Source: Chitinophagales bacterium (GTDB lineage: Bacteria; Bacteroidota; Bacteroidia; Chitinophagales; JADIYW01). Taken from it: a stretch of 40,204 nucleotides of DNA. The notes beneath the pieces were generated by a model. That model saw only the letters and a list, made by a program, of their open reading frames with translations, was not told the origin of the DNA and did no database searches. The position numbers and the translations under genes are program-made. Below, piece by piece: positions 19,770-24,308 of the stretch; the first letter of the stretch is position 1, and each line of letters opens with the position of its first letter. The stretch is from positions 1 through 40,204 of the forward strand of contig JAGNZZ010000022.1 in NCBI GenBank assembly GCA_017984135.1, given 5' to 3'.

Positions 19770-20825
19770 TTATTTTTTAATATTTCTTTCGTCTAGTGCT
19801 TTTTGATACTTTCGTGCATTTGCTTTATGTTGTTGCCACGTTTCCGCAAAATTAGCATAACCAGAAAAATCTTCCTTTGCACAAAAATAAATATATTTAT
19901 GAGATTCAGCATTTAAGGTTTCATCAATACTTTTAAGTTCTGGCAAGCAAATAGGTCCAGGTGGTAATCCTTTATGGATATAGGTATTATACGGCGAATT
20001 TATTTTTAAATCACGGTGCAAAACTCTTCTGCTCACGCCTAATTTTTTTAAACCAAACAACACAGTTGGATCAGCTTGAAGTGGCATCCCAATTTTTAAA
20101 CGGTTAAGGTAAACGCCCGCAATTGTTGGATACTCATCGTATTTAGTACTTTCTTTTTGAATAATGGATGCTAAAATAATAACTTCTGTAGGCGATAAGC
20201 CAAGTTCTGTAGCTTTTTCTCTTCGAGAGTCATTCCAAAATTTAGTATATTCTTTCAGCATTCTAGCTACAAATTCTTTCGCTGTAGTGTTCCAATAAAA
20301 CTCATACGTGTTGGCTAAAAAAATGGTTGGAAAATTTTCTTCCGTTAGTTTTAATGAATCTAATAAAGTTGGATTGTTGAATTCATTTACTAATTCATCC
20401 TTTGTTGCTTCTATTTGAGTGGAAATTTTTTCTGCGAAATGTTCTTTATCTTGAATATTATTAAACGTGATTTTTACTGGCGTTTGACTTCCTGAATATA
20501 ATTTTCTTATTAAAAATAAGTTTCCGGTATTATTACTAATTACATACCTTCCGGGCATAATGTGTTGGTCGTACTTTAAACGTTTGGAAACTATTTTAAA
20601 TGTTTCCATATTCTTGATTAATTTCTGTTTTTTCAATGCTCGAATCACATCATTATAATTCGAACCTGTGTGTATGAATAATACATGTTCTTTTCTGGTA
20701 TTATGATCTTTTATATTGTCTGCAAAAAGTAGTTCATAGGTAAAAAAGATGCCCAAAGCGACTGAAATGCTAAAAATTAGGACAAAAATTGAAATTTTTT
20801 TTCGCATAGTAAATTTTGTAATCAA
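19770..20825 (-). CDS. mltG: Endolytic murein transglycosylase MltG
   Basis: Membrane-anchored lytic transglycosylase that cuts nascent glycan strands. The 351-residue protein has one N-terminal helix (about 11-32), a LysM-like subdomain, and the YceG catalytic domain with GMPLQADPTVLFGL and SPYNTYIHKGLPPGPI. The family motif ASIVEKET reads ASIIQKES here, so the first Glu is Gln223 and the second, Glu225, is kept. The start may be M7 (20807), which gives a more usual N-terminus (MRKKISIF). It probably uses the minus-strand half of the palindromic promoter at 20882-20912. Confidence 0.93.
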   Translation of the reverse strand: MITKFTMRKKISIFVLIFSISVALGIFFTYELLFADNIKDHNTRKEHVLFIHTGSNYNDVIRALKKQKLIKNMETFKIVSKRLKYDQHIMPGRYVISNNTGNLFLIRKLYSGSQTPVKITFNNIQDKEHFAEKISTQIEATKDELVNEFNNPTLLDSLKLTEENFPTIFLANTYEFYWNTTAKEFVARMLKEYTKFWNDSRREKATELGLSPTEVIILASIIQKESTKYDEYPTIAGVYLNRLKIGMPLQADPTVLFGLKKLGVSRRVLHRDLKINSPYNTYIHKGLPPGPICLPELKSIDETLNAESHKYIYFCAKEDFSGYANFAETWQQHKANARKYQKALDERNIKK

Positions 20826-20881
20826 TTGATTATTAGTATATTAGATAGTTAGTTGTGAAAAAGATTTGAGTTAAATCAAAA

Positions 20882-20912
20882 AAAAGTTAAACAACTAGTT
20901 GCAAAATACAAA
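20882..20912 (-). promoter_or_regulatory. Candidate mltG promoter, minus half of a palindromic divergent promoter
   Basis: On the minus strand, TTTG at 20912-20909 (-33) is followed, after 19 bases, by TAACTTTT at 20889-20882. The latter matches the -7 consensus except for the last base. Transcription would start near 20876, about 50 bases before the mltG start codon. It overlaps the plus-strand promoter at 20899-20927. Confidence 0.45.
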
Positions 20913-20926
20913 AGTTGTTTAACTTT
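20883..20926. repeat. 14-bp perfect inverted repeat carrying both -7 boxes
   Basis: AAAGTTAAACAACT (20883-20896) and AGTTGTTTAACTTT (20913-20926) are exact reverse complements with a 16-base spacer. Each arm contains the core TAACTTT of a -7 element, one for each strand, and the spacer holds parts of both -33 elements. On the minus strand the repeat is followed by eight T, so it could also act as an AT-rich terminator for transcripts coming from the gcvP side. Confidence 0.85.
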
Positions 20927-20927
20927 G
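20899..20927 (+). promoter_or_regulatory. Promoter of the candidate small RNA
   Basis: TTG at 20899-20901, an 18-base spacer and TAACTTTG at 20920-20927 match the Bacteroidota -33/-7 pattern, with an exact -7 box. Transcription would start near 20932 and run directly into the hairpins and terminator that end at 20998. No plus-strand coding region lies between. Confidence 0.55.
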
Positions 20928-20931
20928 TGAT

Positions 20932-20998
20932 AGGGTTTTTATGTTTCTAGACTTTAGGTCTGTCGGGTTTTGTGCAATGCAAAACCCGATTTTTTTTT
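20932..20998 (+). ncRNA. Candidate small RNA of about 67 nt, two hairpins
   Basis: This stretch has a promoter in front, a strong intrinsic terminator at its end and no reading frame. Hairpin 1 is AGACT/GGTCT around 20949-20961 with a 3-base loop. Hairpin 2 is the terminator stem at 20963-20989. The 5' end carries GGGTTTT (20933-20939), repeated in the 5' arm of the terminator (20965-20971). Either copy can pair with AAAACCC at 20981-20987, so two alternative folds are possible. I do not recognise a known RNA family. The next plus-strand gene is more than 3.6 kb away, so a leader attenuator is unlikely and a free small RNA is the better reading. Confidence 0.5.
20963..20998 (+). terminator. 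Strong intrinsic terminator
   Basis: TCGGGTTTTG (20963-20972) and CAAAACCCGA (20980-20989) form a perfect 10-bp stem with a 7-base loop, followed by nine T (20990-20998). It is one of the two strongest terminators in the window, yet no protein gene precedes it on the plus strand. Confidence 0.85.
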
Positions 20999-21446
20999 GT
21001 CTATATACAAAATGCTTTTCAGCTAACAAATAAATGTGTAAGAAATGACTTTCAGAGAAATAGTTAGTTTCACGTTTGGGTTTTTATGAAATTTTTTTTT
21101 AGTTAGTTTAGTTCCCCGATAAGTGTTCTTACTTCTTATCTAGTACAAAGATGATTCTTATTTTGTCAACTAAATAGTCGTTTTTTTTTTTTTCGGTGAC
21201 TAATTATTTGCAGTTTACTTATATGTAGTCATTTGATAATCAGTATGTTATGTGTTTATATTTTTTATTCTTTGTGACCAAAAATAGAGTATTTTTTTCG
21301 TTTTTCTAATGTTTTTAGTTCTTCCTATATTTTTTAAATAATAATTACTTTGGTATTCTATTATAAAATAGAGTAGTACAACATAGAAGTGTACATCAAT
21401 TGAATATGCATCAATTTAAATACTAAAAAATAAGATAATGAATCGA
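20999..21446. other. Non-coding AT-rich gap between the small RNA and gcvP
   Basis: No credible reading frame is seen. Contents: the 11-mer GGGTTTTTATG at 21078-21088, identical to the small RNA's 5' end (20933-20943); AGTTAGTT at 21062 and 21101 (also at 20846); an imperfect GATAAG/CTTATC dyad at 21118-21140; a run of 13 T at 21181-21193; and a small hairpin at 21354-21375 (TCTATT/AATAGA, extendable by three pairs), which would lie in the 3' region of a gcvP transcript. Nothing here identifies an attachment site, origin or insertion sequence. Confidence 0.6.
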
Positions 21447-24308
21447 TTACTTTGCGTAATGTTCAATAGGTAAGCAAGTGCATACTAAATTTCTATCACC
21501 GTAAGTATTGTCAATTTTAGCCACACTCGGCCAGAATTTGTTGTCACGAATATATGCTAATGGAAATACTGCTTTTTCTCGAGTGTAAACATGTGTCCAA
21601 TCTTCTTGCAAAGCTTCTTTTGCAGTATGTGGCGCATTGATAATCGGATTATCTAGTGTAGTAGTTTTGCCTGCAATAATATCATCTAATTCTTGTTTAA
21701 TAGAAATCAATGCATCACAAAATGTATCTAATTCTTTTTTACTTTCACTTTCTGTAGGTTCTATCATCAACGTACCTGGAACCGGAAATGCTACAGTCGG
21801 AGCATGATATCCATAATCCATTAATCGTTTCGCTATATCGGCAGCATCTACGCCAGTTTCCTTTTTAAACGGACGAATATCCATAATAAATTCATGTGCT
21901 ACTCTATTATTGGCACCTGAATATAATATTGGAAAATGTGCAGCTAATTTTGCTCTTAAATAATTAGCATTTAAAATGGCATATTTAGTGGCATTAACGA
22001 CACCTTCTGTTCCTAACATTTTGTTGTAAGCATACGATATTAATAGAATAGCGGCACTTCCAAATGGAGCAGCTGATATTGCAGGAATAGCTTGTTGGCC
22101 ACCTGTTTTTACCAATGGATTGGAAGGTAAAAATGGTGCTAATTCTGCCGTACAACATATTGGTCCCATTCCAGGTCCACCACCACCATGTGGAATGGCA
22201 AACGTTTTGTGTAAATTGATATGATTGACATCTGCACCGATTGTTGCTGGCGATGTTAAACCTACTTGTGCGTTCATGTTGGCACCATCCATATATACTT
22301 TTCCACCATATTGATGTATGGTGTCACAAATTTCGATAATGGATTCTTCAAACACACCATGAGTTGATGGATAAGTAACCATCAAACAAGATAAATTTGC
22401 TGCATGTTGTGCTGCTTTGACTTTTAAATCTTCCACATCAATATTGCCTTCAGGTGTCGTTTTCACTAAAACGATTTGCATACCTGCCATGGCAGCACTT
22501 GCCGGATTGGTGCCATGTGCGGAAGTAGGAATTAAAGCTACGTTTCTATGTGCATTGCCATTGGCAACATGAAAGGCACGTATCAACATTAAACCTGCAT
22601 ATTCGCCTTGAGCACCTGAATTAGGTTGCAATGAAGTTGCCGCAAATCCGGTAATATTAGATAATTGTTCTTCTAATTCTTGTATTATTTCCAAATAACC
22701 TTGCACTTGTTCTTTGGGTTGGAATGGATGAATATGCGCAAACTCAGGCCAACTTAATGGAATTAATTCAGAGGTGGCGTTTAATTTCATGGTGCAACTT
22801 CCCAACGGAATCATGGAAACACATAATGACAAATCTTTAGATTCTAAGCGTTTTATATAGCGCAACATTTCCGTTTCTGAATGATGTGTATTGAATACTT
22901 CATGCGTTAAAAAATCAGATTGACGTTGTATTTCTTGCGGAATTTGTAATGCTGGATTTTCTAAATAAGATGAAGTATAATTTGCGCCAATGGATTCAGC
23001 AAAAATGGAAGCAATTTTTTCTACATCTTGTTGTGTGGTCGTTTCATCAATAGTAATTTGAATGGTATCATCAGCATTATACCAAAAATTAAATTTATTT
23101 TTTTCGGCAATGTTTTTTAGGATTGTTGATTTGCCTTTTGCATCTACAATAATGGTATCAAAAAAATAAGCATTTTTATTGGCAAAACTTAATCGCTTTA
23201 GTTCATTAGCTAAAGCAACTGCATTATTATGCACATTCAGAGCAATATTTTTAATCCCATTTTTACCATGATAAACCGCATACATACTTGCCATGATGGC
23301 CAGTAAAGCTTGTGCCGTACAAATATTAGAAGTTGCTTTTTCACGTTTAATGTGTTGTTCACGCGTTTGCAATGCCATGCGCAACGCACGATTGCCGTGT
23401 TTATCTACTGAAACTCCAATTAATCTTCCCGGAATTAAACGAACGAATTCTTCTTTACATGCAAAGAAGGCAGCATGTGGTCCACCAAATCCCATTGGCA
23501 CTCCAAAGCGTTGTGAGTTGCCTACTGCTACATCGGCACCTAATTCTTCAGGAGAAGTTAATAAAGCTAAGCTTAATATATCACAAGCTAAAACGCTATA
23601 GATTTCTTGTGCTTTGCAATTTTCAATAAATGTTTTATAATCTTCTATTGATCCAATAGCATTAGGATATTGCAATACCACTGCAAAATAATCTTCAGAA
23701 GGAGAGAAGTTCTTGTAATTTCCTACAATAACTTCAATATTTAAAGGCAATGCACGACCTTTTACGACATCTATCGTTTGTGGAAATGTATGTTGGTCGA
23801 TAAATATTTTATGTGCTTGAGGTTTGTTTTTAGATTTATTTCTTACTTCATAAAATACGTGCATGGCTTCTGCCACTGCCGTTCCTTCATCTAATAAAGA
23901 TGCATTGGCAATAGGAAATCCGGTTAAGTCACTTATCATGGTTTGGAAGTTCAATAAAGCTTCTAAACGACCTTGTGATATTTCCGCTTGGTATGGTGTA
24001 TATTGAGTGTACCAACCTGGATTTTCAAAAATATTACGTTGGATAACTGTAGGTGTGATGGTATTGTAATAGCCTAATCCAATGTAATTTTTACAAACTA
24101 CATTTTTATTTGCTTTTTCTTTAATGAATTGTAAATATTGATATTCTGACATTGGCTCGCCAATGTTTAGTTCGTGTTTTATTTTGATGTTGGAAGGAAT
24201 AGTTTCTTCCATTAATTGTTCTAATGAATTAACTCCAATTGTTTGAAGCATTGCTTCGGTGTCTGATGGACAAGGACCAATGTGTCGGGCTTGAAATTCG
24301 TTTGGCAT
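21447..24308 (-). CDS. gcvP: Glycine dehydrogenase (decarboxylating), P-protein of the glycine cleavage system
   Basis: PLP enzyme that decarboxylates glycine and passes the aminomethyl group to the lipoyl H-protein. The 953-residue length shows the fused alpha-beta form. The N-terminus has RHIGPCPSDTEAMLQTIGV, and the glycine-rich stretch GGGGPGMGP follows the PLP-binding Lys701 in NLHKTF. The C-terminal part ends with the family's GDRNLVCTC. gcvT and gcvH are not nearby. It is a single-gene transcript with its own -7 box at 24331-24338. I see no glycine riboswitch in the very short leader. Confidence 0.98.
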   Translation of the reverse strand: MPNEFQARHIGPCPSDTEAMLQTIGVNSLEQLMEETIPSNIKIKHELNIGEPMSEYQYLQFIKEKANKNVVCKNYIGLGYYNTITPTVIQRNIFENPGWYTQYTPYQAEISQGRLEALLNFQTMISDLTGFPIANASLLDEGTAVAEAMHVFYEVRNKSKNKPQAHKIFIDQHTFPQTIDVVKGRALPLNIEVIVGNYKNFSPSEDYFAVVLQYPNAIGSIEDYKTFIENCKAQEIYSVLACDILSLALLTSPEELGADVAVGNSQRFGVPMGFGGPHAAFFACKEEFVRLIPGRLIGVSVDKHGNRALRMALQTREQHIKREKATSNICTAQALLAIMASMYAVYHGKNGIKNIALNVHNNAVALANELKRLSFANKNAYFFDTIIVDAKGKSTILKNIAEKNKFNFWYNADDTIQITIDETTTQQDVEKIASIFAESIGANYTSSYLENPALQIPQEIQRQSDFLTHEVFNTHHSETEMLRYIKRLESKDLSLCVSMIPLGSCTMKLNATSELIPLSWPEFAHIHPFQPKEQVQGYLEIIQELEEQLSNITGFAATSLQPNSGAQGEYAGLMLIRAFHVANGNAHRNVALIPTSAHGTNPASAAMAGMQIVLVKTTPEGNIDVEDLKVKAAQHAANLSCLMVTYPSTHGVFEESIIEICDTIHQYGGKVYMDGANMNAQVGLTSPATIGADVNHINLHKTFAIPHGGGGPGMGPICCTAELAPFLPSNPLVKTGGQQAIPAISAAPFGSAAILLISYAYNKMLGTEGVVNATKYAILNANYLRAKLAAHFPILYSGANNRVAHEFIMDIRPFKKETGVDAADIAKRLMDYGYHAPTVAFPVPGTLMIEPTESESKKELDTFCDALISIKQELDDIIAGKTTTLDNPIINAPHTAKEALQEDWTHVYTREKAVFPLAYIRDNKFWPSVAKIDNTYGDRNLVCTCLPIEHYAK

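What the first reader, a model, noticed from the sequence alone, without database searches (positions are those of the whole stretch)
20882..20927. Palindromic divergent promoter: a 14-bp perfect inverted repeat with a -7 box in each arm
AAAGTTAAACAACT and AGTTGTTTAACTTT are exact reverse complements. The right arm contributes TAACTTT to an exact plus-strand -7 box (TAACTTTG, with TTG 18 bases upstream). The left arm contributes the mirror-image minus-strand box (TAACTTTT, with TTTG 19 bases upstream) facing mltG. Polymerase bound for one direction would cover the elements of the other, so mltG and the small RNA would compete or be co-regulated. The symmetry could also be an operator, or, with eight T on the minus side, a terminator for transcription from the gcvP side.
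Basis: partly seen in the sequence, partly recalled or inferred. Interest (0 to 1): 0.62.

Follow-up and report, generated by a model that had tools for sequence, protein, structure and literature searches.

The report
sRNA promoter doubling as opposing terminator
The palindrome is real and conserved, but it looks less like a two-way promoter than like one stretch of DNA that starts a small RNA on one strand and stops transcription arriving from the other side, which would keep a metabolic gene's transcripts from running into the next gene.

Summary
The 14-bp perfect inverted repeat (20883-20896 / 20913-20926) exists, is not chance, and is conserved with its flanks in all 8 genomes held of its genus (Chitinophagales). 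The plus-strand promoter is well supported: TTG (20899-20901), an 18-nt spacer (19 nt in relatives) and TAACTTTG (20920-20927). Both boxes are invariant and lie 5 nt before a ~66-nt small RNA whose first ~24 nt are nearly invariant in paralogues and in another genus. The minus-strand promoter facing mltG is not supported. The left arm behaves as the 3' arm of an intrinsic terminator for leftward transcription. It is followed by an invariant T run. Base-pair changes are compensatory, and every wobble pair (12 cells, 6 columns) works only in minus-strand RNA, none only in plus-strand RNA. One relative destroys the minus -7 box (TGACTTTT) yet keeps the RNA pair. The hairpin is the strongest terminator-like site between gcvP and mltG in all 8 species. 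It appears, weaker, at the same place in a second genus where another gene feeds mltG, and is absent at sRNA paralogues with no such gene. Best reading: a plus-strand sRNA promoter nested inside a minus-strand terminator that insulates mltG from gcvP read-through. No transcript data were available.

The parts
20883..20896 (-). Left arm of the palindrome; as minus-strand RNA, the 3' arm of the terminator hairpin
   Evidence: one parsimony change in the outer 11 bp against 34 in the 11 adjacent upstream columns
20878..20885 (-). T8 run on the minus strand that closes and follows the hairpin; alignment columns 13-19 unchanged in 8 species
20913..20926 (-). Right arm of the palindrome; as minus-strand RNA, the 5' arm of the terminator hairpin
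20899..20911 (-). Inner stem (TTG 20899-20901 pairs with CAA 20909-20911) and loop of the hairpin; TTG and CAA invariant
20899..20901 (+). -33 element TTG of the small-RNA promoter
   Evidence: invariant in 8 species; 18-nt spacer here, 19 nt in the other seven
20920..20927 (+). -7 element TAACTTTG (TAnnTTTG) of the small-RNA promoter
   Evidence: invariant in 8 species; TAnnTTTG lies at -12 to -5 in Flavobacterium (PMC9723704), which predicts a start at 20932
20932..20998 (+). Small RNA, about 66 nt: nearly invariant single-stranded 5' part AGGGTTTTTATGTTTCTAGACTTT, small hairpin, own terminator
20962..20998 (+). Intrinsic terminator of the small RNA (hairpin 20962-20990 plus T tract)
20882..20889 (-).
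   Evidence: lacks the final G in all 8 species; TGACTTTT in G001
19770..20807 (-). mltG (endolytic transglycosylase MltG), the gene shielded by the terminator
21447..24308 (-). gcvP (glycine dehydrogenase), proposed source of leftward read-through
   Evidence: same order in 7 of 8 species, with one extra same-strand gene between in G007

Best explanation
The palindrome is two one-way signals written in the same DNA. On the plus strand it holds the TTG (-33) and TAACTTTG (-7) boxes that start a ~66-nt small RNA at about 20932. On the minus strand the same DNA is an intrinsic terminator: RNA from the gcvP side folds into a 14-bp stem extended by an inner TTG/CAA stem and releases at the T run near 20877-20882. 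The right arm is fixed by the -7 box, so the stem is kept by matching changes in the left arm and inner stem. The effect would be to stop transcripts of the upstream gene (gcvP; 300-590 nt beyond its stop codon) from entering mltG. It also means that gcvP 3' RNA reaching this point carries the full antisense of the small RNA. Shown here: sequence, conservation, strand-specific pairing, gene order. Inferred: actual termination, actual initiation, insulation of mltG.
For: (1) Minus-strand fold -17.3 kcal/mol, z -5.6, against -14.8, z -3.8 for plus. Consensus of 8 species -17.8 minus against -12.7 plus. (2) 93.1% of pair cells form on minus against 85.5% on plus; 12 U.G cells in 6 columns on minus, no G.U cell on plus; three pairs change on both sides, for example AACT/AGTT to AGAT/ATCT in G005. 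(3) T run (columns 13-19) unchanged and the outer 11 bp of the left arm changed once, while the 11 neighbouring columns changed 34 times. (4) Strongest terminator-like site on minus between the upstream gene and mltG in all 8 species, and the only strong one in 6. (5) Same gene order in the genus, gcvP and mltG both on minus. (6) In G010, another genus, where an unrelated gene feeds mltG, both sRNA copies carry a weaker hairpin plus T8 at the same place (-12.7 and -8.7); at the six scanned paralogues beside the solenoid gene there is none near the sRNA except one weak site of -4.3. (7) TTG and TAACTTTG invariant; sRNA body nearly invariant.
Against: No transcript ends or starts have been mapped. 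The stem is A+T-rich (4 G-C pairs in 14), so efficiency is uncertain. G006 and G007 have another terminator-like site just after the upstream gene (-14.0 and -9.4), so the palindrome is not always the first stop. No conserved separate mltG promoter was found downstream of the T run: good -7 boxes in G003, G004 and G006 only. The wobble asymmetry rests on 8 related sequences and 6 columns, and the right arm is fixed by the promoter, so changes can accumulate mainly on one side.
Confidence: 0.74

Rival explanations
1. Fully divergent palindromic promoter: the same symmetric DNA binds RNA polymerase in either direction, so the small RNA and mltG compete or are co-regulated.
For: TTG-19-TAACTTTT is present on the minus strand in 7 of 8 species, and both TTG and CAA are invariant. 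No conserved alternative mltG promoter was found.
Against: The minus box never has the final G, which the intact sRNA promoters on the plus strand keep. G001 has TGACTTTT while the RNA pair survives. The predicted start would fall beside the T run. The wobble pairs and the T run are not explained.
Confidence: 0.13
2. Operator: a dimeric repressor or activator binds the two 11-bp half-sites (AAAGTTAAACA / TGTTTAACTTT) across the small-RNA promoter.
For: The outer half-sites are nearly invariant and the middle is variable.
Against: Half-site spacing differs by one base in the window. G001 breaks one half-site with a change that keeps only the RNA pair. The T run is unexplained. No second site of this kind was found with the gapped pattern, whose hits in the genus are this locus only. 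Paralogous promoters of the same small RNA lack it.
Confidence: 0.08
3. Chance symmetry or a leftover of a duplicated promoter without function of its own.
For: A+T-rich region; the two arms are both promoter-like.
Against: 1 in 2000 shuffles; the left arm and T run are frozen in 8 species whose adjacent upstream columns have changed about three times each.
Confidence: 0.03

Closest known systems
Intrinsic (Rho-independent) terminators
   Same: Hairpin followed directly by a T run, A run before the stem, best site downstream of the co-directional gene
   Different: Long A+T-rich stem (14 bp plus inner 3-5 bp); 300-590 nt after the upstream gene; its 5' arm is the antisense of another promoter's -7 box
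Terminators with antisense initiation nearby (secondary initiation; Harden et al. 2020, PMC6978322)
   Same: A terminator with a promoter on the opposite strand next to it; that paper reports antisense starts near about 20% of active E. coli terminators
   Different: Here the promoter lies inside the hairpin and drives a conserved small RNA; coupling through the same polymerase is untested
Bidirectional promoters by sequence symmetry (Warman et al.; PMC12825309, PMC10268837)
   Same: Symmetric promoter-like DNA
   Different: Those have start pairs 7-25 bp apart around a shared -10 element; here the two predicted starts would be about 55 bp apart with separate -7 boxes
Bacteroidota small RNAs such as GibS (PMC7366714)
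   Same: Conserved, mainly single-stranded 5' part and a Rho-independent terminator
   Different: No sequence relation was tested; no Rfam family reaches its threshold here

Membership tests
Intrinsic terminator (minus strand) | Stable RNA hairpin on the transcribed strand | tested here: met
   -17.3 kcal/mol, z -5.6 on minus; conserved with strand-specific wobble pairs
Intrinsic terminator (minus strand) | T run directly after the hairpin | tested here: met
   T8 at 20885-20878, alignment columns 13-19 unchanged across 8 species
Intrinsic terminator (minus strand) | Transcript 3' end at the T run | not testable with these tools
   No transcript data for this lineage, known here only from metagenome assemblies
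Bacteroidota housekeeping-sigma promoter (plus strand) | TTG/TTTG near -33 and TAnnTTTG at -12 to -5 | tested here: met
   TTG-18/19-TAACTTTG invariant; position from PMC9723704
Bacteroidota housekeeping-sigma promoter (minus strand, towards mltG) | TAnnTTTG kept across relatives | tested here: not met
   TAACTTTT in 7 species, TGACTTTT in G001
Bidirectional promoter by symmetry | Divergent starts 7-25 bp apart with reciprocally overlapping -10 elements | tested here: not met
   Predicted starts 20877 and 20932, about 55 bp apart, separate boxes (geometry, definition)
Known Rfam RNA family | Covariance-model score above the gathering threshold | tested here: not met
   Best L20_leader 28 bits against 58.7 needed

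The most novel reading that the evidence does not exclude
The nesting is a coupling device: RNA polymerase that stops at the minus-strand terminator is left sitting on the plus-strand promoter, turns round and starts the small RNA, so each finished gcvP transcript feeds production of a small RNA that is fully antisense to its own 3' end.
Probability: 0.08. Interest if true: 0.72.

Novelty: new variant of a known kind. Interest (0 to 1): 0.4.

Why it matters
It shows how one short sequence can carry a promoter on one strand and a terminator on the other, with the selection on each visible in the same alignment. Wobble pairs that work on only one strand are a simple way to tell an RNA terminator from a DNA operator or a symmetric promoter when no transcript data exist. 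If polymerase recycling from terminator to opposite promoter is real in cells, this is a compact natural site at which to test it.

Tried and rejected
The first ortholog alignment seemed to show an inverted element in four species; this was only contig orientation and vanished once the strands were matched. In one search the window row carried an alignment gap character, so its energies were redone from the true sequence. The generic sigma-70 scan finds no more promoters than shuffles, and its terminator rule misses this hairpin. Rfam shows only sub-threshold hits; L20_leader at 28 bits was dismissed. No copy of the small-RNA 5' part was found in viral contigs. The gapped palindrome pattern finds only this locus in 7 genus members plus two unrelated hits in 60 genomes. 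A conserved mltG promoter downstream of the T run was sought and found only in part. A search of the own genome for near-matches to the small-RNA 5' part, as possible targets or further copies, gave no excess over the control pattern. The ~500-aa gene beside the paralogues matches no Pfam (above cutoff), NCBIfam or PADLOC family; its predicted helical solenoid has only weak TPR-like hits.

Full report
OBSERVATION. The arm 14-mer occurs only at these two places in the 2.63-Mb assembly. A perfect repeat with arms of 14 or more arises in 1 of 2000 shuffles of the 621-bp intergenic region, and shuffled 40-kb windows average 0.05.

CONSERVATION. A DNA search found the same locus in all seven other genomes held of the genus. 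Oriented alignment shows three blocks: an A run (T run on minus) with the left arm; TTG...CAA and the right arm with TAACTTTG; and a small RNA that is almost unchanged. Gene order is the same: mltG(-), palindrome, small RNA(+), gcvP(-), with one extra minus-strand gene in G007. Named records of the same loci are Chitinophagales/Bacteroidota metagenome assemblies.

THE PLUS STRAND. TTG-18/19-TAACTTTG fits the Bacteroidota -33/-7 promoter. With TAnnTTTG at -12 to -5 (PMC9723704) the start is predicted at 20932, one base before the conserved GGG. The RNA body keeps AGGGTTTTTATGTTTCTAGACTTT in nearly every copy, while the terminator hairpin differs in sequence between copies and stays a hairpin. 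This is what a real small RNA with a fixed 5' part looks like (inference).

THE MINUS STRAND. Three facts point to an intrinsic terminator rather than a promoter. First, the strand test: on the minus strand 93.1% of pair cells form and 12 cells in 6 columns are U.G wobble; on the plus strand 85.5% form and no cell is G.U. Consensus energies are -17.8 against -12.7. DNA symmetry alone (an operator or a promoter) gives no reason for changes to favour wobble pairs on one strand. Second, the T run is unchanged and the outer left arm changed once, while the neighbouring 11 columns changed 34 times. Third, G001 turns the minus -7 box into TGACTTTT, yet the hairpin pair survives as U.G. Across the held genus loci these hairpins rank among the strongest terminator-like sites, and they are the strongest between the upstream gene and mltG in all 8 species.

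CONTEXT TEST. The small RNA is multi-copy. Paralogues lie beside a ~500-aa helical-solenoid gene. Those paralogues keep the promoter but lack the palindrome, and near the sRNA on the opposite strand no hairpin-plus-T site is seen in the six scanned except one weak site of -4.3. In G010, a second genus, the solenoid gene reads towards mltG with two small-RNA copies between them, both pointing the other way; both carry a hairpin plus T8 at the homologous place, weaker (-12.7 and -8.7). In G009 and G011 the solenoid gene sits directly upstream of mltG without the small RNA. So the terminator tracks with a co-directional gene feeding mltG.

WHAT REMAINS OPEN. No transcript ends are mapped. A leftward promoter cannot be excluded: TTG-19-TAACTTTT persists in 7 of 8 species and no conserved alternative mltG promoter was found. 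G006 and G007 have additional terminator-like sites near the upstream gene. The wobble asymmetry is based on 8 related sequences.

COMPARISON. Symmetric bidirectional promoters are defined by starts 7-25 bp apart around a shared -10 element; this site would have starts about 55 bp apart and separate boxes, so it does not belong there. Terminators with antisense starts nearby are documented in E. coli and B. subtilis, with evidence that the same polymerase can turn round (PMC6978322); this site is anatomically a tight version of that arrangement, but coupling is untested.

VERDICT. A real, conserved, strand-asymmetric element: sRNA promoter on plus nested in a terminator on minus. Interest moderate.

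Noticed in passing
window 20932-20998; L033 7206, 7347, 8730; L035 6953, 8401, 8547; L036 5815, 6250: Multi-copy small RNA with a nearly invariant 24-nt 5' part (AGGGTTTTTATGTTTCTAGACTTT) and variable terminator hairpins; exact copies only in this genus and one other genus of the family among 298 genomes of the order.
   Followed up: partly
L033 8792-10318; L035 5360-6886; L036 4108-5595: Unnamed ~500-aa all-helical (TPR-like) protein family next to the small-RNA copies, often multi-copy in the order (55 of 198 genomes); directly upstream of mltG in G009 and G011.
   Followed up: partly
L033 10690-10880 (-); L034 4750-4970 (+); L035 4850-5000 (+): Degenerate tandem arrays of the unit GGGTTTTTATGTTTCTA...GTCTGTC, about 35 nt each, on the upstream side of the solenoid gene; function unknown.
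   Followed up: no
window 20999-21446: No strong minus-strand terminator-like site lies between gcvP and the palindrome in the window, so gcvP 3' RNA would be about 560 nt long and fully antisense to the small RNA.
   Followed up: partly
L073 5165-5638, L074 2199-2675, L076 5931-6407, L077 6074-6541, L078 5586-6062: A small gene (MFEETIQLRVRYHDCDPLGIVYHGHYAKFF...) lies just downstream of mltG in five relatives but is not seen at that place in the window, G003 or G005.
   Followed up: no
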